Shown piece after piece: positions 1 to 45,958 of a stretch of DNA of 54,158 nucleotides. Location of the stretch: positions 1 to 54,158 of the forward strand of contig JAHBZZ010000021.1 in assembly GCA_019635215.1 (NCBI GenBank), read 5' to 3'. Each line of letters begins with the position of its first letter. Positions within the stretch are counted from its first letter, which is position 1. Below the pieces are notes generated by a model. That model was given only the letters and a program-made list of their open reading frames with translations. It made no database searches and was not told the origin of the DNA. The DNA comes from Nitrosomonas sp. (lineage in GTDB: Bacteria > Pseudomonadota > Gammaproteobacteria > Burkholderiales > Nitrosomonadaceae). A program made the position numbers and the translations under genes.

Positions 1-1
1 T

Positions 2-496: not shown

Positions 497-523
497 TATT
501 TAGGCGGTGCAGGGCTCACTCAG

Positions 524-4569: not shown

Positions 4570-4633
4570 CAGCGCCGGTGATTCATTTTTCCGTCCGGGC
4601 ATTCTGTTCATCCTATATTCGGGGGCGGCTGCT

Positions 4634-7600: not shown

Positions 7601-7897
7601 TACATCTTCCGGGCACGAGCTCCAGTAACTGGTAACTCCAAAAAGAATCGAATGAATAGAATACTTAACAGATACTTTGGCTATAACCGTACTACAGGAC
7701 CTGGTGCGCCGCATGATAACGACCATGTTTGGGAAAAACAGCTCGGTGGTACTGATGCATACGAAAACCTTTGGCCATTGAACGCGAGTACGAATCAGAG
7801 ATCTGGGGGTACTATTCGTGCAGAAATTAGCCGTGCGCGCAATCGGCTAGGTATCTCAAGCTTGGCTGGCAAATGGATTAAGCTACGTGCACCATGA
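4634..7897 (+). CDS. DUF4157 eCIS effector with C-terminal HNH-like toxin domain
   Basis: A 1087-aa protein. I choose ATG 4634, which has a G-rich stretch upstream, over a TTG at 4559 that overlaps the ATPase gene. After a Ser/Thr/Ala-rich disordered leader comes an eCIS core (DUF4157) domain with HELTH at residues 229-233, the zinc-metallopeptidase-like signature. A long region of amphipathic helices follows (about 260-820), of the type conserved in DUF4157 proteins. The last 60 or so residues contain DxDH (D1030, H1031), GGTDAYENLWPLN (N1045, N1050) and N1054, resembling HNH/endonuclease-type polymorphic toxins. DNA becomes AT-richer after about 7100, consistent with a swapped toxin module. 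It is probably loaded into or exported by the injection particle. Confidence 0.75.
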   Translation: MTSVAVKTRSADTAKASASIRLVSPTVSSSSSHTQIHRHMQTAAGAKPATARLSTLLSPRIQTATRISSPNDSAEREAEVTARNIIQMPAPPAPGIANQGHGIGRRAEAVSAGSSLLARSPAAHTAVSSLSAHRVIQRSAVASSTVAPDIEQAIRAEMASGMPLPQGVRSFMEPRFRADFGAVRIHTDDKAARLSARLSARAFTYGKHIFFGKGQFRPSERDGAELIAHELTHTIQQREVIQRQEAVTVTEHSPVQVQRLGIGDALNYFADHANHIPGFRMLTLILGVNPINMTRVERNVANTLRAVVELMPGGALITQALDNHGVINRIGTWVQQRIDSLGITGRTIRAAIDQFLASLSWSAVFNLSGVWNDAKQILNEPINRIRAFAERLASDVINMIKEAILTPLARLASEVRGWDLLCAVLNRNPITNAVVPRNAETLIGGFMKLINQGEVWKNIQRGNAVARAWAWFQGTLGGVRVFVQQVPVLFMQALRSLQVADIVSLPGAFVRVAGTFANFAGQFISWAGQQVLGLLTIIFEVVAPQVMVYIRRARGALQTIIRDPMGFVRNLVNAGKRGLKQFAGNFLTHLRASLIGWLTGAMSGANIYIPQAFTLQEIVKFILSVLGLTWQNIRTKLVRVMGEPVVAGLERSFDIVITLVREGPAAAWDKIVESMTNLREMVMEQIMTFVQSRIVQAAITRLVSSLNPAGAFIQAIIATYNTVMFFVERFRQITQVVTAFIDSIATIARGDVSPAANRVEQTMGGLLTLIISFLARLVGLGNVSDAVTNVINRVRQPIDRALDRVVAWIQQRARGLASRALGGRPGAPPIERLQAGIREATAVVNRFGGRRVTAIVLRPLLVPIRARHNLQRLDVMPRGNNWYVEGMVNPTAGQSTTAQVDTSTASGNQQDGSSRDHAIEIAWVKPPVAQYPVISIINPQLVRNAQASDQTLNTDSAARITVRPTESTLLIDDVVIGVRNTTSVNLSVGYIFRARAPVTGNSKKNRMNRILNRYFGYNRTTGPGAPHDNDHVWEKQLGGTDAYENLWPLNASTNQRSGGTIRAEISRARNRLGISSLAGKWIKLRAP

Positions 7898-15026: not shown

Positions 15027-16388
15027 ATGAGTTCAGAAGCTGTAAAAGAAAACAAGTCGTCGCCTAGTGGTGAGAATTTAGCGCCAGATGGGTCAGTCGT
15101 CTTGACGGCCGATAAGCATTTTGGCGCGGCGGCATTCCAAGCCAAGTATGCCATGCGTGACGCATTTGCGGGCACCATTACCGGTTGCATGGCGATACCG
15201 CTGTCCATCGGTATCGCCATGATGTCCGATTATCCGATCAAAGTCGGTCTGGCTACAGTGGTTTTTGCCAGCTTGGTTGGTTGGCTGTTTGCCTGGTTCA
15301 GGCCAGGCAACTACATCGGTAGCGCGGGTATCGCGGCGGGATTGGCACCGGCACTGGCGTTGGGTGTGGCTACATTTGGTATTGAGAACATGGCGTTCTG
15401 TATATTTCTGACGGCGAGCATGCAGGCGGTTTGCTGGTATTTCAATTGGCAGAAATACCTGCTGGTTGCGGTTCCGGTATACTTGGTGGAAGGTCTTTTG
15501 GCCGGTATCGGTTTGAAAATTTTCCTAAAATTCTTCGAGTTTACCTATGAGATTCCGGAAGAATCCATTACCGAGGAGTTCTGGAATGAAGTACGTATAC
15601 AGATGCTAATTATTTCAGCTGTCGGTTTTGCAATGTTTGTTTATCTGTTCTCCAAGTTTAAGGATATTCAACCGGCGATTCCTTATTTTGCTCTGATTCT
15701 GGGTGGCGTTGCTGTGGCGCAATTTGTCGCTGTGCCAATGATTTATGTGGAAGATGTTGATTTGGTATTGAGACTGCCTATTCCAACGGACGTCACATTT
15801 ACCATGGTTATTTTAATGGTGCTGTTCTGCGCGATGCTGGCCACCATTGACGTGATTGAGCAGGTAATGAGTAACGCCGCGATTGAGAAAATTGATCCTC
15901 TGAAACGTAAATGTAACAGCAACAATAGTTTGCTGGCAATCTGGGTTGCTAACATGGGATCGAGTTTCTTCGGCGGTATGACCAATCTGGACGGCTTGGC
16001 GAAAAGTACCACCAACAGATTAGCGGGTGCATATACCAAGTTTTCTCTTGTATTTATTGGTTCGGTAGTGTGTTTCTTTATGCTGAATACTGAGTATCTG
16101 GAGTATTTGCCTAAATTTGCTTTGGCGGCGATTATGATGTTCTCCGGTTATAAGATGATTGCCGGTCTGGTGCACGTAACGCATTATGGCCCTTACGCCA
16201 TGATGCTTGCATTATTGACAGGGTTGCTGGTGTTTCAACTGGGTATCTTCGAGGGGATGATGATTGCGCTAGTTGTGCATGCTGTGATTCATTATATGGT
16301 TTACACCAAACATGACAATATGCCTGGAAGGGATGTTATCAAACGCTACTTTGAGAATCTTAAGCGTGATAGCAGCAACTTGCAATAA
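15027..16388 (+). CDS. SulP/SLC26-type anion (probable bicarbonate) transporter lacking STAS
   Basis: A 453-aa inner-membrane protein with about 12-14 transmembrane segments of the SulP fold. The start is supported by GGGAGAG 8 bp upstream. The N-terminal half has the PLSIGIA motif and GSAGIAAGLAPALALG; the C-terminal half has FGGMTNLDGLAKSTTNRLAG. The protein ends about 30 residues after the last helix, so the usual C-terminal STAS domain is absent. SulP members transport sulfate, dicarboxylates or bicarbonate. Bicarbonate is inferred from the adjacent DAB operon and the autotrophic context. Confidence 0.82.
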   Translation: MSSEAVKENKSSPSGENLAPDGSVVLTADKHFGAAAFQAKYAMRDAFAGTITGCMAIPLSIGIAMMSDYPIKVGLATVVFASLVGWLFAWFRPGNYIGSAGIAAGLAPALALGVATFGIENMAFCIFLTASMQAVCWYFNWQKYLLVAVPVYLVEGLLAGIGLKIFLKFFEFTYEIPEESITEEFWNEVRIQMLIISAVGFAMFVYLFSKFKDIQPAIPYFALILGGVAVAQFVAVPMIYVEDVDLVLRLPIPTDVTFTMVILMVLFCAMLATIDVIEQVMSNAAIEKIDPLKRKCNSNNSLLAIWVANMGSSFFGGMTNLDGLAKSTTNRLAGAYTKFSLVFIGSVVCFFMLNTEYLEYLPKFALAAIMMFSGYKMIAGLVHVTHYGPYAMMLALLTGLLVFQLGIFEGMMIALVVHAVIHYMVYTKHDNMPGRDVIKRYFENLKRDSSNLQ

Positions 16389-16423
16389 CGGGTGATTTGT
16401 AATTAATATGGAGTCGAAAAATG

Positions 16424-16460
16424 GCGGGTTGAATCCAATCGATAGGGCCCGCTTTTTTTT
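16424..16460 (+). terminator. Intrinsic terminator after SulP gene
   Basis: GCGGG pairs with CCCGC across a 19-nt loop that can form its own small TTG/CAA hairpin. Eight T residues follow. It separates the SulP gene from the Usp gene. Confidence 0.7.
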
Positions 16461-16507
16461 ACCACGTTAATGATAACCTGGTAAACAAATCATATAAGGA
16501 TTTTAAA

Positions 16508-16915
16508 ATGTACAAAAAGATCATGGTGGCCATAGATGGTGGTGAAACAACGCAAAGAGCACTGGAGGAGGCGCAGAATATCGTTAATTCCTACAATGCG
16601 GAATTGTGTATCGTCCATTGTATAACAGGTGAGGAAGAAGCTGACAGAGCAGCCGGAAATGCAGTTCTGGAAAAGGCAAAGGAATCTATCGATGCATTGA
16701 GTATCGATACCTATTTGCTGGAAGCCAATATTGCCTATGGTACAAATGGTATATCGGAAGCGATCGGAAATGCAGTCAATGAATGGGGTGCTGATTTACT
16801 GGTGGTAGGTACCGCGAATCGCAGAGGTTTGCAGCGCTTTGTTATCGGATCTGTAGCCGAACAACTGGTGAGTCTTGTCGGTGCATCGGTTCTTTTGGTG
16901 CGTCCGCAAGATTGA
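16508..16915 (+). CDS. Universal stress protein (UspA family)
   Basis: A 135-aa single-domain cytoplasmic protein starting MYKKIMVAIDGG. The C-terminal nucleotide-loop region reads VVGTANRRGLQRFVIGSVAE: the terminal GS is kept, but the first GxxG of the ATP-binding Usp signature is GTAN, so ATP binding is uncertain. It follows the SulP gene after a terminator, 120 bp away. Small nucleotide-binding proteins regulate other bicarbonate transporters (SbtB with SbtA), so a regulatory role here is possible but unproven. Confidence 0.88.
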   Translation: MYKKIMVAIDGGETTQRALEEAQNIVNSYNAELCIVHCITGEEEADRAAGNAVLEKAKESIDALSIDTYLLEANIAYGTNGISEAIGNAVNEWGADLLVVGTANRRGLQRFVIGSVAEQLVSLVGASVLLVRPQD

Positions 16916-16957
16916 TGAGTCTGAATATTTGCCTGTTTTCATAGGGTAATAATTCAT

Positions 16958-17138
16958 CCCAGATTTCCCATTAGGCGATTTTCTAATGGAAATGATTAGA
17001 GAAAAGCTATTGAAATATATTCAGATTTTTCTAATTCAGAAGTGATTGCATTTGAAATTTTTTTCTGGGAATTTGGATTAGGAATCGCTTGCTCTATTAG
17101 CTTGTCATCATCTCCGAATTTCTAATGGAAAATCTGGG
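16958..17138. repeat. 181-bp element bounded by 17-bp inverted repeats
   Basis: The left end CCCAGATTTCCCATTAG (16958-16974) is the reverse complement of the right end CTAATGGAAAATCTGGG (17122-17138) except at one base. The interior is AT-rich, non-coding and includes a further CTAATGGAAATGATTAG motif. It resembles a MITE or a collapsed insertion sequence. No exact target duplication is seen. Confidence 0.5.
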
Positions 17139-17511
17139 TTAATCATAATCATCATACACAATTATTTACTTTGCAAAATTTTAATCTCTTTTTAACATTA
17201 ATTTGACATTGCTTTGATTACAATATTTTAGACTGAATGAAATTCTACTGATCCTAAACAGCGCGTGGCATAAATAATATCCGGCTCATTGTTCAGAAAG
17301 ACATATATAGTCCGAACACATTCCAGGTAATTGGTTGATATACAGCGTATTTAAAAGTTCGCTATCAATCATCGTTTTCGCCGATATTAGGATTTGTATA
17401 AAAAAACTGGGTTTTGAAAAGTAATAAATATAAAAAAACTTAGGCATTCTTAATCGGCATATTTCTTTATGCTGAGCGTTTGCTTTTGAGAGCATAAAGG
17501 TAATTAATATA
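17139..17511 (+). promoter_or_regulatory. Long leader of the DAB operon
   Basis: A non-coding AT-rich stretch. A perfect -35 TTGACA occurs at 17203-17208, but the best -10 matches (TATTTT/TTTTAG) are poor, so the promoter is uncertain. If it is used, the transcript has a leader of about 280 nt. TTGATA at about 17335 and TATCAA at about 17367 are inverted half-sites of unknown meaning. The ribosome site before the first gene is AAAGG. Confidence 0.3.
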
Positions 17512-18984
17512 ATGGGGATACTCAGTACACTATTATTGACGCCATTTTTAGGCATTCTTGTCCTGACGCTCATACCGGGAGGGAATATAAGTCAAATCCG
17601 TTTCACAGCGAATATTTTTGCCACCGTGGCTTTTTTATTCAGCTGCTGGCTGATTGTAGATTACAACCAGCTTTATGGTGAAGTTCAATATTATGAGCAG
17701 TTCATTTATAACCCAAGCTTTAATTCGGCATTCGCTCTAGGCGTTGACGGCGTATCACTGCCAATGGTAGTTCTGGCATCGGTGCTCACATTAATCGCGC
17801 TTCTGGCGTCCTTCAGCATTGTGCATAACGTCAAAAGTTATTATATCAGTGTTTTGTTGCTTGAACTAGGCATGTTGGGCGTTTTCCTTTCTCAGGATTG
17901 GTCGCTATTTTACATCTTCTGGGAATTAACCCTGATACCACTGTTTATTCTGATCGCGCGCTGGGGGGGTGTTCGCCGTGGTGCCGCCAGCATCAACTTT
18001 GTTTTGTATACCATGGGTGGATCGATATTCATGCTGATCAGTCTGATGGCGATCAGTCAGCATATGCCTGAACACGGCGGTACGTTGATGGCCGACATGA
18101 CCGAAGCCGCGCGGAGCATGTCCAGAAGCGAACAGCTCTGGGTTTTGATGGGCTTTTTGATTGGTTTTGGTGTCAAAATGCCTGTTTTTCCATTGCATGG
18201 TTGGTTGCCGCTGGCGCACGTGGAAGCACCCAGTCCGGTCAGTATTCTACTTTCAGGCATTCTGCTCAAAATGGGCGCATACGGTTTGATACGTGTTGTT
18301 GTCATGCTGCCTGAAGCGACGCTGGTCTTTCAGCCTTATTTAATGTTTATCGCATTGTTTGGGATGATTTATGGCGGTGTACTTGCATGGCGGCAATCGG
18401 ATCTCAAGGCCATGGTGGCTTATTCTTCGGTGAGTCATATGGGGATTGTGCTGTTGGGTATTGCCACTTTGAATTTTACCGGACTAACCGGAGCCGTTTT
18501 GCAAATGACAGCGCATGGTCTGGTTGCTGGTGCATTGTTCTTGCTGGTTGGTTTGCTGTATGAGCGTACACATACCCGGAATATATTGGATTATAGCTCG
18601 CTTGTGCAGGTAATGCCACGTTTTGCCTTTTTTATGACGATCACATTGTTTGCAGCAATGGGAATGCCTGGAACAGTTGGATTTGTGGCTGAAATACATG
18701 CGGTCATCGGCGGTTATCAGCAATGGGGAAATTTGATGCTGTTTCTGGGGTTGAGCATTCTTATCAGTGCGGCTTATGCGATGCGGACAGTTGGTATGTT
18801 ATTCACGGGGCCGGTCAAGCCACAGATGCGCGAAATTGAGGATTTAAAATTATATGAATTGACTGCGGCCATTATTCTGGTTGCCGCAATCGTGTTGTTG
18901 GGTTTGTGGCCTACGCCTTTAATTGATTTGTCCGTGGCAACCATAACCCAGATGAATGACTTTATCAGTCAAAGTATTCACTAG
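17512..18984 (+). CDS. NuoM/MrpD-like proton-translocating subunit of DAB locus (first copy)
   Basis: A 490-aa inner-membrane protein with about 14 helices, of the complex I antiporter-like subunit family. Charged residues equivalent to the NuoM proton channel are all present: E138 (FWELTLIP), K222 (GVKMPVFPLHGWLP), K253 (LLKMGAYGL) and E394 (GFVAEIHA). No other complex I genes (nuoA-J) are nearby. The next gene, dabA, starts 8 bp downstream. This makes it a likely extra energy-coupling subunit of the carbon pump, not respiratory complex I. Confidence 0.88.
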   Translation: MGILSTLLLTPFLGILVLTLIPGGNISQIRFTANIFATVAFLFSCWLIVDYNQLYGEVQYYEQFIYNPSFNSAFALGVDGVSLPMVVLASVLTLIALLASFSIVHNVKSYYISVLLLELGMLGVFLSQDWSLFYIFWELTLIPLFILIARWGGVRRGAASINFVLYTMGGSIFMLISLMAISQHMPEHGGTLMADMTEAARSMSRSEQLWVLMGFLIGFGVKMPVFPLHGWLPLAHVEAPSPVSILLSGILLKMGAYGLIRVVVMLPEATLVFQPYLMFIALFGMIYGGVLAWRQSDLKAMVAYSSVSHMGIVLLGIATLNFTGLTGAVLQMTAHGLVAGALFLLVGLLYERTHTRNILDYSSLVQVMPRFAFFMTITLFAAMGMPGTVGFVAEIHAVIGGYQQWGNLMLFLGLSILISAAYAMRTVGMLFTGPVKPQMREIEDLKLYELTAAIILVAAIVLLGLWPTPLIDLSVATITQMNDFISQSIH

Positions 18985-18992
18985 GATTAACT

Positions 18993-21900
18993 ATGCACGC
19001 ACATCACACTGATTTAGCAGATAAAAAGTCTGAAATTTTACATTACCTGGATCATCTGGGGCATATTCTGCCTGGACAGGCGACCATACGTGAATTTGTC
19101 CATCATAATACGATTCATGGTTTTCAGCACTTGCCTTTTGAAGTTGCGGTCAAGGAAGTAGAAGCGCTAACGGGAATACACGGTTATTTGTCAGATGACA
19201 GAAACCGGGCTTTATATCAGAAAGGCGCCATTACCGATGAAGATCTGGCTGCTGCAATAGCGCATCACAAGGAGTTAAAAGCCGAAGAACACGTTATGAA
19301 GACCGATCAGTTATCGATTTCTCGTAACGACATTTATCAAGTGGCTTTGCGCTATGATTTACAGAGCATTTCAGCCAGCAATTTAAACTGGCAGATCGAA
19401 GAGTTTGATGTACTGAATAAAATTCAACCAGACGTGCCAGGTTCCGTACGTGAAGTCTTACTTGAAACAGCACAGAATGAGAAGCATTATGCCGCCTTGC
19501 TGTGGGATCACATTCTGGATCGGATGGAAATTGACAAAATACCATTACATCCGGAAAACATGGTCGATTTATCCGAAGAACAGGCCAGGGTATGGCTGGA
19601 TAGAATACGCGCGGAACTTTCGGATAATACCAATTTGATGGTTCATCAAAAAATGCGGATAGAAGCGCAAGAAAAACTCAATGAGATGTTGGATCAGATT
19701 GGTGTGCGGCTGACGATGCGGGATTTTGTCAAAGCACTGACCGGGGTCGATATTCTTTTTTCTGTTCGTGCGCAGCTGATTCGGATTTGTGCATCAGCAT
19801 TGGATGAAGGTATCTCAGCATGGCGGCTGCCAGATTGCAGTGATACCGGATTATATAAGGCATGGAAAAATGTGGTTAATTATGATGCAAATCCTTTCTT
19901 GCATGATTTGCCGGATTGGCAGCGTGTTATTTCAGAGGCACCCGATGATCCGGTAGACTGCATTATTAGCCAATTAAAATATATGGAAATCCCCGAGGTG
20001 CGCTGGGAGGGCTATCTGCGCCTAGTGGCGCTGGAACTGCCGGGGTGGTCGGGGATGATTAACTGGAGACAGAATCATTCGAACTATATTGCTGAAAGCG
20101 GGCCAACACAGGTGCATCTGGCAGATTATCTGGCGATACGATTAATACTGGATCGGCTCTGGTTGTCGCAGGCATGCGAGGAAAATTGGAATATCGATGC
20201 AAAACTCGGTACGTTCAAGTATTACTTTCATAAGTATTTGTCGGAATTCATGGTGCGCAAGTTGTTTTACCAGGGTGATCTGCCTGAGTATCTGACAAAT
20301 CTGGTTAAATATCTTTTTCTCCATTCCGGCTCAGAACGTTATGAGCAATCCGAATGGCAGGAGTTGGCTGATCTGATCTGGACATGGCAATTCAGCTCTA
20401 TGGCAGATAACAGTATTGTGTACACTCCATTCAATTCGGGCTGGCGTTTATTTCGCCTGTGTCAGCATCTGGGTATCAAGACTTCGCAAATTAAAAATAT
20501 TCAGAAAAATGATTTCTTGAATATGCTGAAGGTTATAAATGAGTTCACTGCGGATAAAAGAGGCAGTGTATGGTTGTACGCTTATGAATACCATTACAGG
20601 GAAAATTTTTATCATGCGATTCATGCCAACCTGAATCGTGGGCGATGGGCCAAGCGGGACCAAAGACCCCAGGCGCAAATTATGACCTGCATGGATGATC
20701 GGGAAGAAAGCCTGCGCCGTCATCTGGAAGAAATCAATCCGGCTATTGAAACGATAGGGGCTGCTGGTTTTTTTGGTATTCCTATGAATTATCGGGGAAT
20801 TGATGACATTAATCGTAAGAAACAGTGTCCCCTGCCCGTAACACCAACCAATGAAGTTATTGAGGAACCCAGGGAAGGGACGGAACAGTTAGTCGCTGCG
20901 CATAACAAAGGCTATACACTCTTCAGAAAATTGGCCTATCTGTTTAATCAATCGCTGCGCCGCAGCCTGCTATTTTCGCATGCGGTAATCGATGCCTTAG
21001 CGCCCATTGCTTTTTTTGGTTTGCTCGGCAAGGTTTTTTCACCAAGATATGTTCTGGCAGTTAATAGCAGGCTGCGGCAGGTTATTGAAAAACCAGTGCC
21101 GACACGTTTGAATTTTATTGCGCCGCAGTCGGATGTGGCGGCTACACCTGAAAATCCTCGTATTGGTTTTACAGACAATGAACAAGCTGACAGGCTGGCT
21201 TTGTTTTTACGGACAACCGGTTTGACGTACGGTTTTGCGCCAATTGTCTGTTTATTCGGGCATGGTTCAACCAATCAGAATAATCCGCACGGATTTGCCT
21301 ATAACTGTGGTGCATGCAGCGGCAAGCGGGGCGGACCGAATGCGCGTCTGTTTGCGGCCATGATCAATCGCCCGGTCATAAGAAAGTTGTTGGCTCAGCG
21401 GGGCATTCATGTGCCTGAAGACACCTGGTTTGTGGGTGCTGAACATGATACATGCAGTGATGAATATTTCTGGTTTGATCTTGAAGATATTCCGGAAAAT
21501 GCGTTGCCCGCTTTTGAATCTGTCCGAAAATATCTGGAAATGGCCAGACAGGCATCAGCGCAGGAACGATGTCGGCGTTTTGTGTCGGCTGATCATCCTA
21601 GGGTACCGAGTAACGGATATGCACATGTCCAGGAGCGTGCGAATGATTTTTCACAGGCTTTTCCCGAATTCAATCACGCAACCATAGCTGGCGCAATTAT
21701 TGGTCGCCGCTCTGTTTCGCAGGGGGTATTTCTGGATAGGCGGGTTTTTCTCATTTCATACGATGCTACCCAGGATTTGGACGGGAAGCTTTTGGAAGGT
21801 TTGCTGTTGGCAGTAGGTCCTGTTGGAGCCGGTATCAATTTGGAGTATTACTTCTCAACAGTGAATAATGATTATTTCGGGTCGGGTACAAAGGTTACCC

Positions 21901-22277
21901 ATAACATTACCGGTATGTTCGGTGTTATGGAAGGTACCAGCAGTGACTTAAGAACGGGACTGACCAAACAGATGGTTGAAATTCATGAGCCTGTCCGTCT
22001 GCAGGTTCTGGTCGAAGCCAAAACTGAGATTCTTGGACAAATTTACGAACGGCAGGCAGCTATCCAGGAATTGGTAGGCGGAGGGTGGATTTTACTCGGC
22101 GCTATTGATCCCGATACAGGCGAAATCTCCTATTTTGAGCGGAATGTGGGATTCGTGCCGTGGAAGTCAAAAGAGAGGAGTGTACCCGTGTTTGATTCGT
22201 CGAATGCTTACTACCAGGATATGAGTGAACCGCTGCCACCGGTATTAGTTAGACAACCAGAAATGACGGGAGCCTGA
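18993..22277 (+). CDS. dabA: DabA-type inorganic carbon pump subunit (DUF2309)
   Basis: A 1094-aa largely soluble protein that in DAB complexes is thought to act as a membrane-tethered, vectorial carbonic-anhydrase-like unit converting CO2 to bicarbonate. The beta-CA-like zinc site is visible: C566 and D568 in TCMDDRE, H757 in GHGSTNQ and C772 in YNCGACSG. The H-to-C spacing of 15 agrees with characterised DabA. The protein is longer than the Halothiobacillus DabA of about 830 aa, with additions in the N-terminal half. It is followed by dabB after 2 bp, and the pair is the core of the operon. Confidence 0.94.
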   Translation: MHAHHTDLADKKSEILHYLDHLGHILPGQATIREFVHHNTIHGFQHLPFEVAVKEVEALTGIHGYLSDDRNRALYQKGAITDEDLAAAIAHHKELKAEEHVMKTDQLSISRNDIYQVALRYDLQSISASNLNWQIEEFDVLNKIQPDVPGSVREVLLETAQNEKHYAALLWDHILDRMEIDKIPLHPENMVDLSEEQARVWLDRIRAELSDNTNLMVHQKMRIEAQEKLNEMLDQIGVRLTMRDFVKALTGVDILFSVRAQLIRICASALDEGISAWRLPDCSDTGLYKAWKNVVNYDANPFLHDLPDWQRVISEAPDDPVDCIISQLKYMEIPEVRWEGYLRLVALELPGWSGMINWRQNHSNYIAESGPTQVHLADYLAIRLILDRLWLSQACEENWNIDAKLGTFKYYFHKYLSEFMVRKLFYQGDLPEYLTNLVKYLFLHSGSERYEQSEWQELADLIWTWQFSSMADNSIVYTPFNSGWRLFRLCQHLGIKTSQIKNIQKNDFLNMLKVINEFTADKRGSVWLYAYEYHYRENFYHAIHANLNRGRWAKRDQRPQAQIMTCMDDREESLRRHLEEINPAIETIGAAGFFGIPMNYRGIDDINRKKQCPLPVTPTNEVIEEPREGTEQLVAAHNKGYTLFRKLAYLFNQSLRRSLLFSHAVIDALAPIAFFGLLGKVFSPRYVLAVNSRLRQVIEKPVPTRLNFIAPQSDVAATPENPRIGFTDNEQADRLALFLRTTGLTYGFAPIVCLFGHGSTNQNNPHGFAYNCGACSGKRGGPNARLFAAMINRPVIRKLLAQRGIHVPEDTWFVGAEHDTCSDEYFWFDLEDIPENALPAFESVRKYLEMARQASAQERCRRFVSADHPRVPSNGYAHVQERANDFSQAFPEFNHATIAGAIIGRRSVSQGVFLDRRVFLISYDATQDLDGKLLEGLLLAVGPVGAGINLEYYFSTVNNDYFGSGTKVTHNITGMFGVMEGTSSDLRTGLTKQMVEIHEPVRLQVLVEAKTEILGQIYERQAAIQELVGGGWILLGAIDPDTGEISYFERNVGFVPWKSKERSVPVFDSSNAYYQDMSEPLPPVLVRQPEMTGA

Positions 22278-22279
22278 TT

Positions 22280-23848
22280 ATGGATGTGCTTGTTATCTTT
22301 ATTCCTTTACTCCCGTTTATCGCTGCAGTCATTATTGGTTTTGGCTATTTTTCCAGTCAAGTTATAGGATTACAGGGAGAACTGTCGAGTTCGGATGTTG
22401 CCCGGAATGCAGTTTATTTGTCATCGGTATCCGCCATTCTTTTGCTGATTGCTGATCTGGCCGGTGAAAATTCAGGATCTAAAATGGTGGGCCAGTGGCT
22501 GGATAGTGGTCATTTTGTGGTGAATCTGAATTTTATTACCACAGGCTTTAATGTTGTTGTTGCTGCTTTATTTTCAGTCATTCTGGTCATTATCACGTAT
22601 TTTTCAAAAAACTATATTCACCAGGAATCCGGATTCCGCCGGTTTTTCTTTGTGCTCAGCCTGTTTTCATCCTCAATGTTTCTGCTGATTCTGTCAGGAA
22701 ATGCCATCGGGACGTTTATTGGCTGGGAATTGGCAGGGTTATGTTCTTATCTATTGATATCTTACTCATATGAACGCCCTGTCGCGGTAATTAATGCAAC
22801 ACGGGTATTTGTGACCAACCGGATTGGTGACACGGGTTTTATTCTTGGAATTGCCTTGTCTTTCTACTTTGCCGGAACGGTAGACTGGTTGAGTCTGAAT
22901 GGGATGGCAGAAACTTTGGCGACGCCGACAGTTACTGTAATTAGTTTATGTTTTGTGGTTGCCGCAATCACCAAATCGGCACAATTGCCATTTTCTCCCT
23001 GGTTAGCGCGTGCAATGGAAGGACCGACCCCCTCAAGCGCAGTATTTTATGGATCGGTGATGATTCATTCAGGTATTTTTCTGGTCATTTTATTACAGCC
23101 GATCATTGAGAATGCACCGTTTACAATGGGTTTTCTGGTAATCATCGGTCTGTCTACGGCCATATACAGTTATTTGGTCGGGTTAACTCAGACAGATGTT
23201 AAGAGTTCAGTGTGCTTTGCAATTACCGGGCAACTGGGCTTGATGTTTCTGGAATGCGGATTGGGTTTATGGGAGCTGGCGATGTGGCATATGTGTGCTC
23301 ATGCAATCGTCAGGTGTTTCCAGGTTTTGACAGCTCCCTCGCTGATTAAATATGTCAATGGCAATCCCATGAAACCCGTATCCCCATTTTTTATGAATAA
23401 ACGGTGGTTGTATATTGCGTCTATACAACGATTCTGGCTGGATCCGATCGCTGACAGAACATTGGTCAGGCCGGTTTATGGTTTAGGGCATGATTTGGAT
23501 CGGTTTGATAAAAATATCATTGACCGTGCGATGGGCGATCCGGTTTCATCATTCACGGCCATTTCTTCTTTGACTCAAATAGAGAAGGAGGTGCACCGGA
23601 AAAGAGTGGATGAAATCCAGATGGAATTTGTCCGAGGAAAAGGCATAGTCGGCAAGTTGCTGGAATGGGTGGCCAATATCATGAGCTGGTTCGAAGAACG
23701 TCTGGTGCTTCGTGGAATTGGTATGGATCTGGTTACTATCGGTAGAAATCTGGGGCATGCTGCCAACATGTTTGAATTGCTCCTGCTCAAACCGCGTTAT
23801 CTCGTGCTGTTTGTATTCATTGTGTTAATGCTTGCCGCTTCGATCTGA
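22280..23848 (+). CDS. dabB: DabB-type membrane subunit (NuoL/NdhF-like)
   Basis: A 522-aa inner-membrane protein related to the antiporter-like NuoL/NdhF subunit but lacking the long lateral helix, as in DabB proteins. The channel residues E150 (IGWELAGLCS) and K232 (AITKSAQLPF) are kept, with VFYGSVMIHSG following. The C-terminal part is a hydrophilic domain of about 130 residues before a last helix. DabB is the cation-coupling partner of DabA. Its stop lies 7 bp before the next ATG. Confidence 0.93.
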   Translation: MDVLVIFIPLLPFIAAVIIGFGYFSSQVIGLQGELSSSDVARNAVYLSSVSAILLLIADLAGENSGSKMVGQWLDSGHFVVNLNFITTGFNVVVAALFSVILVIITYFSKNYIHQESGFRRFFFVLSLFSSSMFLLILSGNAIGTFIGWELAGLCSYLLISYSYERPVAVINATRVFVTNRIGDTGFILGIALSFYFAGTVDWLSLNGMAETLATPTVTVISLCFVVAAITKSAQLPFSPWLARAMEGPTPSSAVFYGSVMIHSGIFLVILLQPIIENAPFTMGFLVIIGLSTAIYSYLVGLTQTDVKSSVCFAITGQLGLMFLECGLGLWELAMWHMCAHAIVRCFQVLTAPSLIKYVNGNPMKPVSPFFMNKRWLYIASIQRFWLDPIADRTLVRPVYGLGHDLDRFDKNIIDRAMGDPVSSFTAISSLTQIEKEVHRKRVDEIQMEFVRGKGIVGKLLEWVANIMSWFEERLVLRGIGMDLVTIGRNLGHAANMFELLLLKPRYLVLFVFIVLMLAASI

Positions 23849-23855
23849 GGAATTC

Positions 23856-25445
23856 ATGAATAATGCAAATATAATTTTATGGTCTGAAATGGCGGGGTTT
23901 CCCGTATTATCAGTACTGATGCTCATTCCACTGGTCAGCATGATTCTGGTGATCCAGATTTCCTCTCCGAGTACCGCATTACGACTGGGGATTGGCGGAG
24001 CGATCCTGACACTTGTCGCTGGTATCTATATGCTGTTCAAGTTTGATATTGATCGCCAGATCGGCATTCAGTTTTATGAGCAATATCAAGTTTTCGGACT
24101 GACGTATAGTGTTGGCGTCGATGGCACCAATATCCTGTTTGTGCTGCTTACTACAGTTCTGGCTGTATTGGCGTTGATCTATACCCTGACAACACGGCGC
24201 GTTTCTGATCGATTACATATTGCGTGTTTGTTGGGCTATGAAGCCATACTGATCGGCGCGTTTACCGCTATGAACGCGATACAGTTCTGGTTCTGGTGTT
24301 TCCTTGAGTTGATACCGGTGGTATTGATGACGCTCAGGGCCGGATCGGGACAAAATCGCCGCTGGGTTGTCGCTTTGCTTCTGCAGCATTGGGGAAGCGG
24401 ATTGTTTATGGTATTGGCGGGGTTCTTGATGCTCGGATTTGGCGTCATGATAACCACCGATGTACTTTCCTTTGACTGGCTGGTTCTGAAAGAAAATGAT
24501 GTCAAACTTGAATATGCAACGCTGATCTTTTTTCTGCTGTTTTTTGGTTTTGCAATACGCATGCCGTTGTTCCCGTTTCATGGCTGGCTGCCGGTATTGG
24601 CGGAGCAGGGAACTGTTGCCAGTGTGAGTATTTTTCTGGTCAGCTTGAAACTGGGCGTTTATGGCGCCATGCGATTTTTAATTCCGTTACTTCCCGAAGT
24701 TGCGGAAGAATGGACATGGTTTGTTGTGACATTGGGTCTGGCAGGCATCTTTTACGGGGCGCTGTTGGCGCTGATGCAGATCAATATGCGCAGGTTGCTG
24801 GCGTTTGCCATCATCAGTCAGACGGGGCTGCTGGTGATCGGAATTTTTGATTTCAATAAATATGGCATGGAAGGCAGTATTCTGCTTTCAGTGACCTACG
24901 GACTGGCTGCGGCAGGCATGTTTTTGAGTCTTGGGATGATTTATAAACGTACGCATACTGCCTATATTCCGCGTTTGGGGGGTATTTATGATATGAATGC
25001 CGCTATTGCGGCTTTATTTGTCATCTGTGCCTTAAGTACTATGGTGATGCCGGGAACACCCGGTTTCGACGGTATTCATTTATTGCTCGAGGGTACTATC
25101 AAAGGGCAGGGCTGGCTGGTTGCAATCGCTATTCTGATCGGAAACGTTCTGGCGGTCGGCTTGTTGTTGCGGGCTTTTCAGCAGATATTCATTGCGCCAC
25201 CCAAACGCTATCATGGGCCTTTTAAATCTGTTATGCACAGTTCCGCCACACAGCCATCACCAAGAAACGAATGGATGATCGCGATCGTCATCTGCGCCAT
25301 ATTGATCACCGCTGGCATACATACCTCGCCATGGCTGAACATTATCGATCAAAACATTCAATCCGTCAGTGGGACGTATTCCGGCTTGGAAATCTCCCAT
25401 TCGGAAGCATTGGCTGCAAACCACATTATCACGAAGGATTATTAG
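23856..25445 (+). CDS. NuoM-like subunit of DAB locus with altered channel residues (second copy)
   Basis: A 529-aa multi-spanning protein. ATG 23856 with GAGGA just upstream is preferred over a TTG at 23832 inside dabB. It has the NuoM fold, but two proton-channel positions differ. The lysine before FPFHGWLP is R235 (AIRMPLFPF), and the TM12 glutamate position holds I407 with an aspartate two residues earlier (GTPGFDGIH). E151 and K265 remain. Hence this copy may be a structural or modified-coupling subunit. The next gene follows after 1 bp. Confidence 0.87.
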   Translation: MNNANIILWSEMAGFPVLSVLMLIPLVSMILVIQISSPSTALRLGIGGAILTLVAGIYMLFKFDIDRQIGIQFYEQYQVFGLTYSVGVDGTNILFVLLTTVLAVLALIYTLTTRRVSDRLHIACLLGYEAILIGAFTAMNAIQFWFWCFLELIPVVLMTLRAGSGQNRRWVVALLLQHWGSGLFMVLAGFLMLGFGVMITTDVLSFDWLVLKENDVKLEYATLIFFLLFFGFAIRMPLFPFHGWLPVLAEQGTVASVSIFLVSLKLGVYGAMRFLIPLLPEVAEEWTWFVVTLGLAGIFYGALLALMQINMRRLLAFAIISQTGLLVIGIFDFNKYGMEGSILLSVTYGLAAAGMFLSLGMIYKRTHTAYIPRLGGIYDMNAAIAALFVICALSTMVMPGTPGFDGIHLLLEGTIKGQGWLVAIAILIGNVLAVGLLLRAFQQIFIAPPKRYHGPFKSVMHSSATQPSPRNEWMIAIVICAILITAGIHTSPWLNIIDQNIQSVSGTYSGLEISHSEALAANHIITKDY

Positions 25446-25446
25446 C

Positions 25447-26952
25447 ATGATCGAAGCAGATTTTCCATTTCTGAGTTTTCTCATCATTATTCCATTGGCA
25501 GGTGCGATTCTGGCTGGATCAATACGGAATATCGATGTCGCAAAACATATCGCGTTTTATGTCGCGATACTGACTTTGTTGTTATCACTTTTTGCGCTTA
25601 TTTTGTTTGATCCCAGCTACGGCGAATTTCAGCTCGTTGAACGCTATGCATGGATTCCTTTGCTGAATATCGAATATTTGGTCGGCGTTGACGGGATTTC
25701 GATCTTGTTTTTACCGATGACCGCATTACTGACATTAAGCACGATGCTTGCTGCCTGGAATTCAGTCTCTTTACTGACGCGCTTTCATTTTGCGTTGCTG
25801 TTGGCACTGGAAGGCGTGAGTTTCGGGATCTTTTGTGCACTGGATACAGTACTTTTTTTCCTGTTCTGGGAACTGACATTGCCACCGTTCTTTTTCTTGA
25901 TCGGTTTGTGGGGTATCGGTTCTCATCGCCGCAGTGCTGCGATGAAGTATCTTTTGTATATGATTGCAGGAGGAGTGCCTATTTTGCTGGCGTTTATCCT
26001 GTTGGCATCCAATCACGCGTATCGTGTCGATGAAATCATTCCACTGGGGCTTTCTTTCAGCCTGCCGGTATTGCTGAATACACCGTTGCCCGATAATTTG
26101 CAGACCATCGTTTTTGTCCTTCTGTTATTAGGATTTGCTGTAAAAGCGCCTTTGGTGCCGCTGCACACATGGATGCCTACGGTGGCGATGGAGGGCCCGA
26201 CGCATGTTGTTGCTTTGCTCGTAGGCTTAAAATTGGGTGTTTACGGTATTCTGCGATTTGCGATGCCTCTGGCGCCGGTAGCAGCGGCGGATTTTAGCTG
26301 GTTATTGAGCGTTATAGGCGCCATTACACTTATTTACGCTGCCTTGATTGCGCTGCAGCAGACAAATTTGCGCCGGTTGCTGGCTTATTCAAGTGTGAGT
26401 CATGTGGGATTGGTGATTGTCGGCATTGCGTCATTAACCGTACAAGGACTGCAAGGCGCAATTTTCCAGATGATTAATTTTACGTTTATGGCCAGTGCGC
26501 TGATGTTGATTGCCGGATTTATACATCATAGAATTGGCAGTACCGAGACAATCCATTTGGGTGGGCTTGCAAATGTAATGCCCAAATTGACCTTTTTTTA
26601 TTTTTTGTTTCTTTTGTCGAGTATCGGATTACCGGGGACCAGCGGCTTTCCAGCTGAGTTGTTAATGATAATCGGTGCACTTAATACGCATTCGATTCTC
26701 GGATTTGCTGCCTTGTCCGGCGCGATTCTGAGCGCTGCTTATATGTTATCGTACACACGTAAAGCTTTTCTGGGGCCTGTAATACACAATGACGTAAGGC
26801 AGGTTTTTGATTTAAAACCAAGAGAAATAGCGTTATTATTTATCCCCGGACTGTTGGTTTTGATATTCGGCCTGTTTCCGGATTATGTGTTAAATATTAA
26901 TCAATCTGCTTCGGAAACATGGTTGTCAAGATTAATAATTCAAACACCTTGA
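25447..26952 (+). CDS. NuoM-like proton-translocating subunit of DAB locus (third copy)
   Basis: A 501-aa membrane protein. ATG 25447 is chosen because it follows the previous stop by one base and has GAAGGA upstream; a longer in-frame start lies inside the previous gene. The channel residues are intact: E142 (FWELTLPPF), K233 (AVKAPLVPLHTW), K262 (GLKLGVYG) and E404 (GFPAELLM). With the first copy, DabB and the altered copy, the operon encodes four antiporter-like subunits. Confidence 0.87.
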   Translation: MIEADFPFLSFLIIIPLAGAILAGSIRNIDVAKHIAFYVAILTLLLSLFALILFDPSYGEFQLVERYAWIPLLNIEYLVGVDGISILFLPMTALLTLSTMLAAWNSVSLLTRFHFALLLALEGVSFGIFCALDTVLFFLFWELTLPPFFFLIGLWGIGSHRRSAAMKYLLYMIAGGVPILLAFILLASNHAYRVDEIIPLGLSFSLPVLLNTPLPDNLQTIVFVLLLLGFAVKAPLVPLHTWMPTVAMEGPTHVVALLVGLKLGVYGILRFAMPLAPVAAADFSWLLSVIGAITLIYAALIALQQTNLRRLLAYSSVSHVGLVIVGIASLTVQGLQGAIFQMINFTFMASALMLIAGFIHHRIGSTETIHLGGLANVMPKLTFFYFLFLLSSIGLPGTSGFPAELLMIIGALNTHSILGFAALSGAILSAAYMLSYTRKAFLGPVIHNDVRQVFDLKPREIALLFIPGLLVLIFGLFPDYVLNINQSASETWLSRLIIQTP

Positions 26953-26977
26953 AAAATTTTCACTACATGGGATAAAA

Positions 26978-28060
26978 ATGATGACTACACAAAATACAGG
27001 TATTGATTACCTACTTGATTTGAATGCCAGGCATTCGCGGGCTTTTATGGATCTTTCATCCGAGCGTCGCAGATACAGAGGGGAACATCCGACTGAAATA
27101 GCGGCACTCAAATGCATGGACGGTAGATTGCACTTACCGGTAATGACACAAACCGCACTGGGTATTATTCAGCCATTCCGCAATCTGGGCGGTAAATTCG
27201 ATCTGGGTTGGCCTTTTTTTCAAAATATAATTGAACAATGGGTGCAGTATTCGATCGGGCGCGGCAGGCATTGTCTTGTTTTTGTAACCTATCATTACGC
27301 GCGTGGCGATGCACACCGCGGTTGCCGCGGGTTCAACTATGATACCAACGCGGCAAGAGATGCCGCGGTTAAACTCAAAGATCAGTTTATCCGCGTTTAT
27401 GGCAGAGGTGCTGTAATGCCTATTGTCTGTGGCATTGAAACCGATCTGGATGCGCTGATTTTACATGGTGAAGATGTTGGGACAGTTGTCGATCTGGCGA
27501 AAATCAAACAGTCTTCACAGTTGGAATTGGAAGAACTGCTCTACTCCTTGTATCCGACAATGCCCGAACGGATTGTGCGGGATATGATTCCGCTTGTGCG
27601 TGGTAATATCAGGCATATCGCAGAAATTCGTGCATCTAATAGGCCTACTGAGGATGCTGAGCATAAAGAGTGGGTTCTGGGTGTGGGTCGCGGGTTTGAC
27701 TGGTTGCATGCGATTAATACGGCGTTTATTGTAGGGCCGTTTGATCCGAATTTGTCGGTTGCTATCGAGACTGCGGCGAAGCTTCTTAAAGGGAATATTG
27801 ATGAGGGGCGCGTCGATCCGAATGGTATCGTTTTACTGACATCAGCCGCATTCCGTGACGAGGCCGGTCCAGAATATCATCTGGCCAGGGAAAAAGCGCT
27901 ATTTCTCAGCGAGTTTGCACAAAATATTATCAGAGATAAAGTGCCGGATTTGGTTCCTCATCTACAGATACTGACCGGTTTCACTGATCTGGATACGCGG
28001 AAGTTCGAAGTCATTGAACGTTTGGAAGCCGCACCGGCTAAAAAGAAAAAAATTGCATAA
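26978..28060 (+). CDS. Beta-carbonic-anhydrase-like zinc protein of the DAB operon (CsoSCA-like)
   Basis: A 360-aa soluble protein. The beta-CA zinc signature is clear: CxDxR (C46, D48, R50) and HxxC (H113, C116). The spacing between the two parts is about 10 residues longer than in ordinary beta-CAs, and a C-terminal domain of about 200 residues has no match I can name. Some nitrifier homologues are, I believe, named carboxysome shell carbonic anhydrase. It lies 25 bp after the last NuoM-like gene, so it is probably co-transcribed and equilibrates CO2 and bicarbonate for, or within, the pump. Carbonic anhydrase activity is inferred from the motif only. Confidence 0.7.
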   Translation: MMTTQNTGIDYLLDLNARHSRAFMDLSSERRRYRGEHPTEIAALKCMDGRLHLPVMTQTALGIIQPFRNLGGKFDLGWPFFQNIIEQWVQYSIGRGRHCLVFVTYHYARGDAHRGCRGFNYDTNAARDAAVKLKDQFIRVYGRGAVMPIVCGIETDLDALILHGEDVGTVVDLAKIKQSSQLELEELLYSLYPTMPERIVRDMIPLVRGNIRHIAEIRASNRPTEDAEHKEWVLGVGRGFDWLHAINTAFIVGPFDPNLSVAIETAAKLLKGNIDEGRVDPNGIVLLTSAAFRDEAGPEYHLAREKALFLSEFAQNIIRDKVPDLVPHLQILTGFTDLDTRKFEVIERLEAAPAKKKKIA

Positions 28061-28074
28061 TTTTTATACTGTCA

Positions 28075-28100
28075 GCTTTAAACCGCTCGCGGTTTGAAGC
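28075..28100 (+). terminator. Hairpin at the end of the DAB operon
   Basis: GCTTTAAACCGC and GCGGTTTGAAGC form a 12-bp stem with one mismatch, 15 bp after the stop codon. A T-tract is missing, so it may act as a stabilising 3' hairpin or a weak terminator. Confidence 0.5.
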
Positions 28101-28364
28101 TAACGTTCCAATACGGCTAAATAACAAAAAAGCGCCTGTGTAGTTTTTGCGTGCACGTGCATAGCTGACTCAAAACAAAACTGGCTTGAGCCGGAATCCG
28201 AAGCTACTGATTTGTACCAGGAGCGGCTCAAGTTCAGTTACCGCATTATAAGAAATGGTAATGTCCCGGGTAATATTTCTGTGAAGAATATGGCTGATTA
28301 ATTCGTCCAAATGCGTGCAGGATAGAAGCACAATCGCTACGAAATAAAAAATACAGAATCAGAA
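28101..28364. other. Non-coding stretch before the Pho box
   Basis: No gene, recognisable protein remnant or strong repeat is seen here apart from scattered short open frames. It separates the DAB operon from the Pho-type promoter. Confidence 0.4.
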
Positions 28365-28415
28365 CTTTAATAAAAATTTCATCAAATCTTCATAAATACG
28401 TCAAAGTAATTTCAT
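28365..28415 (+). promoter_or_regulatory. Tandem Pho box of the plcP-patatin unit
   Basis: Seven-base units with 4-bp spacers recur every 11 bp: CTTTAAT, ATTTCAT, TCTTCAT, ACGTCAA and ATTTCAT. This matches the PhoB-binding architecture (CTGTCAT repeats). A -10-like TTTAAT follows at 28424-28429, 8 bp after the last unit, and the gene starts at 28466. Individual units are degenerate, but the periodicity is exact. Confidence 0.65.
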
Positions 28416-28465
28416 AAATCCGCTTTAATCTGACCATTATCTTCAATTCAATAAAAAGCGATACG

Positions 28466-29269
28466 ATGGTCAATAAAACTGCACCCATGAAAGTCAGAAG
28501 CGTATGGATATCCGATATACATCTCGGTTTCCGAGGTTGCCAGGCGCAAGCGCTGCTGCATTTCCTGCATTCGGTCGAAACAGAGTATCTGTTTCTGGTT
28601 GGCGACATTGTTGATTTCTGGGGAATTAAGAAGAACCCTTACTGGCCACAGGAACACACCAACGTCATTCGCTCGATTCTGGGCAAAGCCAAGCATGGTA
28701 CCAAGGTGATCTATATTCCCGGTAACCATGACGAAGCCCTGCGCGACTGCGCGGGTCATGTATTCGGCAATCTTGAAATTCATCTGGATTATGTCCATAC
28801 AACCTTTGATGGCAAGAAACTGCTGATCATGCATGGTGATGAATTCGACGTCATTGTCAAGCACAGCCGGTGGATCGCAATGCTCGGCAACGCAGCTTAC
28901 GATACATTACTGTGGCTGAACCGGCATCTCAACGGTCTGCGGAAAATCTTCGGTTATTCCTACTGGTCTCTGGCTGCATATCTGAAATTGAAGGTTAAAA
29001 ATGCGGTCAGTTATATCAGCAGCTTCGAAGACGCGCTGGCTCGGCTCGCTAAGGAACGCGGCGTTGACGGCGTTGTCTGCGGGCATATCCACCATGCGGA
29101 AATCAAGGAAATCAACACAATATTGTATTGCAACGATGGTGATTGGGTCGAAAGCTGCACCACTTTGCTGGAACATCCCGACGGATCGCTTGAACTGGTT
29201 TATTGGGCGGAAAAATTCGAACAATTCAAAAATATCGAAGGCATGATCACTGCGAAAAAAGCAGCCTGA
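28466..29269 (+). CDS. plcP: PlcP-like phospholipase C / UDP-2,3-diacylglucosamine diphosphatase-family phosphoesterase
   Basis: A 267-aa calcineurin-like metallophosphoesterase. All five metal motifs are present: D17-x-H19, G46-D47-x-x-D50, G86-N87-H88-D89, MHGDEFD and GHIHH. It differs from LpxH in the GxRGCQA region and the YWSLxxYLKLKVKNAV segment, which fit the PlcP subgroup. PlcP degrades membrane phospholipids to diacylglycerol when phosphate is scarce. The Pho box directly upstream and the lipid genes downstream support this over a lipid A role. ATG 28487 is an alternative start. Confidence 0.78.
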   Translation: MVNKTAPMKVRSVWISDIHLGFRGCQAQALLHFLHSVETEYLFLVGDIVDFWGIKKNPYWPQEHTNVIRSILGKAKHGTKVIYIPGNHDEALRDCAGHVFGNLEIHLDYVHTTFDGKKLLIMHGDEFDVIVKHSRWIAMLGNAAYDTLLWLNRHLNGLRKIFGYSYWSLAAYLKLKVKNAVSYISSFEDALARLAKERGVDGVVCGHIHHAEIKEINTILYCNDGDWVESCTTLLEHPDGSLELVYWAEKFEQFKNIEGMITAKKAA

Positions 29270-43503: not shown

Positions 43504-43519
43504 AAAATTCACAAAGTAA

Positions 43520-44563
<1,044 letters not shown>

Positions 44564-44737
44564 TTGATTACTCGTGCTTACTTATAAGCAGTATAAACAG
44601 TTCTGATGGCATCGCGCAAATGCTGTGGAACGCTGTCAATTATCAAAATTGTTTATTGAAATCTACTTTTGATTAATTTTAGGTAAAGGGTAGCAAAAGC
44701 TATCCTTTATTTATTTTAAGACAAACTGGAGTTTACT

Positions 44738-45916: not shown

Positions 45917-45958
45917 TCTTTCCCTTTCCAGAAAAATATAAACAAGTCAGATAGAAAA

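What the first reader, a model, noticed from the sequence alone, without database searches (positions are those of the whole stretch)
17512..28060. Expanded DAB carbon pump: four antiporter-like subunits plus a carbonic-anhydrase-like gene
Seen: six tightly packed genes in the order NuoM-like, dabA, dabB, NuoM-like, NuoM-like, beta-CA-like, with gaps of 1-25 bp and no other complex I genes. Known: the characterised DAB system needs only DabA and DabB. Inference: extra proton-channel subunits could raise the energy coupled per CO2 hydrated, a design analogous to cyanobacterial NDH-1MS but without the peripheral arm. I am not aware of experimental work on this six-gene form.
Basis: partly seen in the sequence, partly recalled or inferred. 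Interest (0 to 1): 0.85.

Follow-up and report, generated by a model that had tools for sequence, protein, structure and literature searches.

The report
Five-gene DAB carbon pump with antiporters
A conserved bacterial gene set joins the known CO2-to-bicarbonate pump DabA-DabB to three extra proton-channel-like proteins; it occurs in nitrifiers, methane eaters and other bacteria and may be a pump that uses several protons per CO2, but I found no experiment on it.

Summary
In detail: M1(NuoM)-dabA-dabB-M2(NuoM)-M3(NuoM)-CA lie on one strand at 17512-28060 with 1-25 bp gaps. The core is five genes, kept in 61 of 62 related loci with enough flank and 19 of 20 remoter loci; the sixth gene is a CsoSCA2-type carbonic anhydrase, an optional neighbour. 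The gene set is not new: a 2017 paper (PMC5700660) noted NuoM and SulP genes beside ybcC(dabA)-nuoL and proposed more ions per turnover. What I did not find in print is the residue pattern. M1 and M3 keep the canonical NuoM charges; M2 lacks the TM5 and TM12 Glu and has Arg for the TM7 Lys in 87 of 87 sequences. DabA keeps its zinc site, but the finger Glu444 essential in DAB2 is Asp in 56 of 81 near members, with no acid in 21 of 21 remote ones; some two-gene DabAs also lack it. Proton flow may therefore run through M1/M3, away from DabA, as in complex I. The 8 nitrifier hosts tested have RuBisCO, the 12 methanotrophs do not, so it is not tied to the Calvin cycle. Function is inferred.

The parts
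17512..18984 (+). M1: NuoM-like antiporter subunit (490 aa), canonical TM5 Glu, TM7 Lys, TM8 Lys, TM12 Glu; sister to complex I NuoM
18993..22277 (+). dabA (1094 aa), PF10070; zinc site C566/H757/C772 with D568-R570; model helices 631-657 and 659-682 at the place of the DabA2 finger, with D667 in the column of Glu444
22280..23848 (+). dabB (522 aa), NuoL-like; keeps the TM5 Glu that is Ile151 in DAB2 DabB
23856..25445 (+). M2: NuoM-fold subunit with altered charges (E151 two residues past the usual TM5 Glu place, R235 for the TM7 Lys, K265 kept, D405 and H408 in TM12)
25447..26952 (+). M3: NuoM-like antiporter subunit (501 aa), canonical charges; sister paralogue of M2
26978..28060 (+). csoSCA2-like carbonic anhydrase (360 aa), zinc ligands and the Asp-Arg pair kept (C46, D48, R50, H106, C116); optional neighbour
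15027..16388 (+). SulP-family transporter (453 aa, no STAS match in Pfam), recurrent upstream neighbour
16508..16915 (+). universal-stress-protein gene between SulP and M1; SulP-Usp-M1 in this order in 8 of 80 loci

Best explanation
The five genes most likely encode one membrane complex of the DAB/DAC family: DabA hydrates cytoplasmic CO2 to bicarbonate at a buried zinc site, DabB holds DabA in the membrane, and three NuoM-type subunits extend DabB. Shown from sequence: the DabA active site is intact; M1 and M3 have complete NuoM-type proton-channel charges; M2 has a conserved but changed set; the column of the DabA finger Glu that is essential in DAB2 holds Asp here and no acid in remote members. 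Inferred: protons driven inwards by the proton-motive force pass through M1 and M3, and the motion is passed along the antiporter row (through DabB and M2) to DabA, so that hydration is coupled to more than one proton and separated in space from the proton path. This would let the pump run at low membrane potential or very low CO2. CsoSCA2, in carboxysome-free Nitrosomonas, would be a separate soluble enzyme that equilibrates the accumulated bicarbonate with CO2.
For: Gene order: M1 is the next gene upstream in 74 of 74 loci with 1.6 kb of flank (72 within 300 bp; L178 and L179 at about 360 bp), DabB-M2-M3 follow in 61 of 62 with 5 kb (L130 has DabB in two ORFs); same five genes in 19 of 20 remoter loci (in L227 M2 is in two ORFs and M3 cut by the contig end). 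Distances of the five proteins correlate over 36 shared loci, r 0.73-0.89; M1, M2, M3 and DabB of the module each form one clade. DabA zinc ligands and Asp-Arg pair 81/81 and 21/21. M1: TM5 Glu 75/76, TM7 Lys 76/76, TM8 Lys 76/76, TM12 Glu 75/76; remote 20/20 each. M3: 66/66 and 19/19 each. M2: TM5 Glu absent 68/68 and 19/19, TM7 Arg 68/68 and 19/19, TM12 Glu absent 68/68 and 19/19, TM12 His 68/68 and 19/19 (full-length rows only). Bicarbonate-related neighbours in some loci: SbtA and P-II proteins, SulP, carbonic anhydrases. DAB2 mechanism and Glu444 mutants from PMC13144422 (introduction, discussion and two result sections read).
Against: No evidence that the five proteins form one complex. 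DabB's TM5 Glu is likewise kept in five two-gene DabBs and lost in six, so it is no mark of the long form. DabB is short (522 aa) and seems to lack the long lateral helix that ties complex I antiporters together (from length and recall of NuoL). In one methanotroph (L158) M1 lacks both the TM5 and the TM12 Glu. One remote locus (L231) has a DabA piece with none of the other four genes in 18.5 kb. Promoter- and terminator-like sites are about as many as in shuffles (22 against 24.1, 14 against 12.3), so a single transcript is not shown. The energetic benefit is inference.
Confidence: 0.45

Rival explanations
1. DabAB work alone as in DAB2, and M1-M3 form a separate ion-translocating (Mrp-like) unit in the same operon, for example to balance protons or sodium when CO2 is hydrated.
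For: Known DAB2 needs only DabA and DabB (PMC13144422). M1-M3 fall with NuoM and could in principle translocate ions without DabA. Two-gene DABs with SulP, without M genes, exist in the same genus and even in the same locus.
Against: No other Mrp-type gene lies among the genes of the cluster or its scanned neighbours; M1 lies before dabA and M2-M3 after dabB, an interleaved order kept in 61 of 62 and 19 of 20 loci.
Confidence: 0.23
2. The complex runs the other way: an exergonic reaction in DabA drives ion export through several antiporter subunits (the reading of the 2017 COGNAT paper).
For: Proposed in PMC5700660 (section 10 read); the number of membrane subunits would set the number of ions.
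Against: Later work on DAB2 supports PMF-driven CO2 uptake (PMC13144422). CO2 hydration or its reverse under cell conditions releases too little energy to pump several protons (inference). Some neighbours are bicarbonate transporters and carbonic anhydrases.
Confidence: 0.07
3. It is a sodium- or proton-coupled bicarbonate transporter, as proposed for MpsAB, in which the extra subunits give coupling strength; M2 with its Arg/Lys/His core carries the anion.
For: M2 has lost the canonical acidic residues while keeping Arg, Lys and an invariant His; MpsAB was proposed to be a Na+/HCO3- symporter (introduction of PMC13144422).
Against: DabA keeps the zinc-site residues (81/81, 21/21), which a pure transporter would not need; M2 also has conserved acids at new places (Glu two residues on in 68/68 near rows but 1/19 remote, Asp two residues back in 68/68 and 18/19).
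Confidence: 0.15

Closest known systems
DAB2 of Halothiobacillus neapolitanus (DabA2-DabB2, PDB 9rd0)
   Same: PF10070 DabA with the same zinc ligands and Asp-Arg pair, a helix hairpin in the model at the finger place, NuoL-like DabB
   Different: Three extra NuoM-type subunits; DabA 1094 against 870 aa; finger Glu444 column is Asp here; DabB keeps the TM5 Glu that is Ile151 in DabB2
COGNAT clade C operons (ybcC upstream of nuoL with COG1008 NuoM and COG0659 SulP), PMC5700660
   Same: By its description the same kind of gene neighbourhood; same idea that subunit number sets ion number
   Different: In the section read: no residue analysis of NuoM genes, no CO2 function, opposite energy direction; the supplementary figure with the clade was not seen, so identity with this set is not checked
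Two-gene DABs with SulP in the same genus (L068, L070, L147)
   Same: DabA upstream of DabB; DabB with TM5 Glu; nearest DabB clade in the tree
   Different: No M1-M3; finger column Gln; shorter DabA (846-868 aa)
Cyanobacterial NDH-1MS (recalled, and introduction of PMC13144422)
   Same: A CO2-hydrating soluble part with NuoL/NuoM-type subunits
   Different: NDH-1MS has an electron-accepting peripheral arm; no such gene among those scanned here
2M complex I (extra NuoM)
   Same: Extra NuoM subunit to couple more protons (passage in PMC7117926)
   Different: No redox arm here; three M subunits of which one has changed charges
CsoSCA2, PMC9164163
   Same: Short N-terminus, active-site residues kept, no carboxysome genes in the genome; the paper lists Nitrosomonas oligotropha
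   Different: The section read does not mention the DAB genes next to it

Membership tests
DAB/DAC family | PF10070 cytoplasmic subunit | tested here: met
   782.9 bits, cut-off 25; phmmer to 9rd0_A E 4e-68
DAB/DAC family | Zinc ligands Cys, His, Cys and Asp-Arg pair | tested here: met
   81/81 near and 21/21 remote
DAB/DAC family | Adjacent NuoL-like PF00361 subunit | tested here: met
   DabB 132.2 bits; DabB falls with two-gene DabBs
DAB/DAC family | PMF-driven CO2 hydration | not testable with these tools
   needs an assay
DAB2-type single-channel mechanism | Glu444 at the DabA finger tip | tested here: not met
   Asp667 in the window; near 56 D, 17 N, 8 other of 81; remote 0 acid of 21; two-gene DabAs 7 E, 6 Q of 13
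DAB2-type single-channel mechanism | Loss of the DabB TM5 Glu (Ile151) | tested here: not met
   Glu in 71/71 and 20/20
DAB2-type single-channel mechanism | Two-subunit complex | not testable with these tools
   subunit make-up unknown
NDH-1MS / complex I | Peripheral arm and quinone-module genes in the locus | tested here: not met
   none among the nine genes of 15027-29269 scanned; complex I L, M, N lie on C6
NuoM subfamily (M1, M2, M3) | TIGR01972 above cut-off | tested here: met
   467.9, 284.5, 449.7 bits, cut-off 263.8
Canonical NuoM proton channel (M2) | TM5 Glu, TM7 Lys and TM12 Glu | tested here: not met
   0 of 68 and 0 of 19 for each
CsoSCA2 | CsoSCA catalytic domain with all zinc ligands | tested here: met
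   ligands and Asp-Arg 28/28; the Pfam score of the window protein is just under cut-off, 21.4 against 21.5, a relative (L092) scores 29.4
CsoSCA2 | Not in a carboxysome locus | tested here: met
   no BMC shell match in the whole genome

The most novel reading that the evidence does not exclude
A complex I-like vectorial carbonic anhydrase: the five-gene form is a redox-free proton machine in which two intact NuoM channels (M1, M3), a rewired relay (M2) and DabB drive DabA from a distance at two or more protons per CO2, while the direct proton carrier in the DabA finger has been given up.
Probability: 0.3. Interest if true: 0.8.

Novelty: new variant of a known kind. Interest (0 to 1): 0.58.

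Why it matters
How proton flow drives CO2 hydration in DAB pumps is open; a natural variant with extra channels, one rewired subunit and a changed finger residue gives a direct genetic test. If more protons are used per CO2, it would be a geared carbon pump of use for engineering carbon fixation, and it would show that antiporter rows of complex I type can be coupled to a reaction that is not a redox one. It also shows that such pumps occur in bacteria without RuBisCO, such as methane oxidisers.

Tried and rejected
Rejected: 'the extra M genes are the missing antiporter genes of complex I' (L, M and N lie on C6). Rejected: 'M2 is simply dead'; a first look at canonical columns suggested it, but neighbouring columns showed a conserved shifted Glu (near rows), Asp and His. 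Rejected: 'the module belongs to ammonia and methane oxidisers'; that came from the 80 best of 365 hits and failed on an even phylum sample, where 36 of 398 genomes carry it and none of the 36 has an AmoA/PmoA (PF02461) match, the window's own genome included. Rejected: 'DabB TM5 Glu marks the long form' and 'loss of the finger Glu marks the long form' (both also seen in two-gene DABs). A pairwise alignment first put Gly at the finger Glu place; the multiple alignment puts Asp there.

Led nowhere: promoter/terminator scan (one 11-of-12 promoter-like site at 17486-17513 overlaps the M1 start codon). Foldseek of the DabA model: no match with E up to 0.001, and DAB2 is not among the 50 rows shown, probably because its entry is newer than the library. 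The antiporter tree holds one protein of the own genome three times (rows L008, L010, L014), which does not touch the result. Rows left out before counts: proteins shorter than set lengths, so 68 M2, 66 M3, 71 DabB, 76 M1 and 81 DabA rows out of 80 loci plus the window; M2 of L227 (two ORFs) and everything but DabA of L231 in the remote set, which also holds L097. G721 (long DabA frame, 39% over 529-1086 and weaker pieces) was not counted among the 36 and its locus was not fetched; it has no RuBisCO match. Two papers on DABs were not held, so their operon figures were not seen.

Full report
What is there. The window is a whole contig (C14) of a 3.4 Mb genome, 99.96% complete. The closest named hit to its DabA is from a Nitrosomonas MAG (89% identity), and the genome has an AmoC match. 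Six genes lie in a row: M1, dabA, dabB, M2, M3, CA, with gaps of 8, 2, 7, 1 and 25 bp when M2 starts at ATG 23856 and M3 at ATG 25447. Family searches name them NuoM-like three times, DabA, a NuoL-like DabB and a CsoSCA-like carbonic anhydrase. It is the only PF10070 match of the genome. Of 14 PF00361 matches in the genome four are here, three on C6 (NuoL, M, N by the trees), two on C16, two on C23 and three on C34; C34 reads as an Mrp-type cluster (my reading of the ORFs).

Is it a unit? A scan of the named species genomes gave 365 relatives of DabA; the best 80 were loaded. Of 74 with at least 1.6 kb upstream, all have M1 as next gene (72 within 300 bp; L178 and L179 at about 360 bp), and of 62 with at least 5 kb downstream 61 have DabB-M2-M3 next; the exception, Methylobacter tundripaludum (L130), has DabB in two ORFs. 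Those with a genus in the title are Nitrosomonas, Nitrosospira, Nitrosovibrio, Nitrotoga and gammaproteobacterial methanotrophs. In an even sample of 398 genomes of the phylum, 36 carry a long DabA that covers most of the query (the window itself, the others at 36-54% identity, six of them in pieces). Of 20 such remote loci taken, 19 have the same five genes (L227 with M2 in two ORFs and M3 cut) and one (L231) has a DabA piece without the others. In the window's genus 16 of 37 genomes have the long DabA: the window, 13 with the five genes on one contig, one (G015) split over contigs and one (G019) cut by a contig end.

The carbonic anhydrase is optional. It follows M3 directly in 17 of 56 loci with at least 6.8 kb downstream, and stands on the other strand in 3 more. 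A search of 369 genomes of the class for it gave five other genomes with close relatives (32-45% identity); in one (L094) it stands beside the DAB set, on the other strand, and in four (L092, L093, L095, L096) without it. It keeps the zinc ligands and Asp-Arg pair in 28 of 28 proteins compared. It fits CsoSCA2, a short non-carboxysomal relative of the carboxysomal enzyme (PMC9164163, section 6 read). The window's genome has no shell-protein match; 2 of the 61 genomes searched do, and neither carries the five-gene set.

Residues. Near rows are full-length proteins of the 80 loci and the window; remote rows are those and L097. DabA keeps Cys566, His757, Cys772, Asp568 and Arg570 in 81 of 81 near and 21 of 21 remote proteins. 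The finger Glu444 of DabA2, whose Ala and Gln mutants abolish DAB2 activity (PMC13144422, section 11), falls in the column of Asp667; near proteins have D 56, N 17, Y 3 and five others of 81, the non-D cases being methanotroph or unnamed MAG loci; remote ones have no acid there in 21 of 21; 13 two-gene DabAs at hand have E 7 and Q 6. The six Q cases show that loss of the Glu is not special to the long form. An AlphaFold model of DabA (mean pLDDT 85.1) shows helices 631-657 and 659-682 at this place. In E. coli NuoM numbering, M1 has Glu144 75/76, Lys234 76/76, Lys265 76/76, Glu407 75/76 (L158 lacks both Glu); M3 has each of the four in 66/66; remote sets 20/20 and 19/19. M2 has none of Glu144, Lys234, Glu407 in 68/68 and 19/19; it has Arg at 234 and Lys at 265 in all; Glu at 146 in 68/68 near but 1/19 remote (else Gln or His); Asp at 405 in 68/68 and 18/19 (one Glu); His at 408 in 68/68 and 19/19. 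The M2 model (pLDDT 87.8) is a NuoM fold, TM-score 0.87 to mycobacterial NuoM 8e9i_M. DabB keeps the TM5 Glu in 71/71 and 20/20; it is also kept in five two-gene DabBs and lost in six.

Descent. In a tree of 84 rows M1 is sister to complex I NuoM (95/91), M2 and M3 are sisters (100/95), and DabB joins two-gene DabBs, nearest to the SulP-linked ones. Distances of the five proteins correlate across 36 loci (r 0.73 to 0.89), though shared species history alone also gives correlation. In a tree of M1+M3+DabB (13 nitrifier, 16 methanotroph and 3 remote rows) nitrifiers fall in two groups among methanotrophs; one clade is rejected (p-AU 0.0006, quick tree; I had seen a like split before naming the group). 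This points to transfer of the set between these guilds.

Who uses it. Of 20 hosts, 8 nitrifiers (by name) have a RuBisCO match and 12 methanotrophs have none; completeness of these genomes is not given. Of the 36 carriers in the phylum sample only 2 (the window's genome and G627) have a RuBisCO match. Of 36 genomes tested for the citrate-binding part of ATP-citrate lyase, a reverse-TCA mark (recalled), 23 have it, against 0 of 14 control genomes; that set is the 34 RuBisCO-free carriers, of which 23 are positive, plus G627 and G409, both negative. So the set occurs with several carbon economies. Among flanking genes of 100 loci, SbtA and P-II proteins cluster in 7 loci each (Pfam-checked in L132 and L120), SulP in others, and beta carbonic anhydrases in 4 (two checked, in L133 and L179), which supports a bicarbonate role in part of the hosts.

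Mechanism. Best reading: PMF drives protons through M1 and M3; the motion is relayed to DabA. With about 14.5 kJ per mol and proton at 150 mV (calculated), one proton is already enough for a steep bicarbonate gradient, so extra protons make most sense at low PMF or very low CO2. This step is inference. Complex formation, stoichiometry and direction are not shown.

Prior art. PMC5700660 (section 10 read whole) reports that ybcC upstream of nuoL often has COG1008 NuoM and COG0659 SulP genes and suggests that subunit number sets ion number. Searches of the held open-access library for DabA/DabB, DUF2309, Nitrosomonas with carboxysome and NuoL, ybcC with NuoM, CsoSCA outside carboxysomes, the DAC name, 'inorganic carbon transporter subunit', and DAB with nitrifiers or methanotrophs (listings seen, passages of some papers) showed me no experiment on the five- or six-gene form. 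Most subscription papers are not held, among them the 2019 DAB paper.

Noticed in passing
L147, L155, L178: A two-gene DAB lies in the same locus as the five-gene set in Nitrosomonas mobilis and two methanotroph loci, so one cell can hold both kinds.
   Followed up: partly
L073 6251-13200: Two adjacent DabA ORFs (1046 aa each) in a carboxysome-bearing relative (G001), near its RuBisCO gene.
   Followed up: no
L072:1898-2695: The small protein between DabB and DabA of the carboxysome-linked DAB weakly matches the C-terminal part of an antiporter (NF006241, 20.9 bits, far under its cut-off; BLAST to M1 33.5 bits; no Pfam match): perhaps a half antiporter.
   Followed up: partly
window 2350-7897: G+C-rich stretch (57-63% over 1-6000) with an AAA ATPase and an eCIS_core (PF13699) protein, perhaps the end of a contractile injection gene cluster.
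   Followed up: no
window 41488-48573: Transketolase, GAPDH, PGK, pyruvate kinase and aldolase genes in a row on the same contig as the pump.
   Followed up: no
G000 whole genome: AmoC is found but no AmoA match (PF02461), although a congener (G006) has three; perhaps collapsed repeats in the assembly.
   Followed up: partly
L158 M1: M1 of Methylobacter sp. KS41 lacks both the TM5 and TM12 Glu, the only such case in 76.
   Followed up: no
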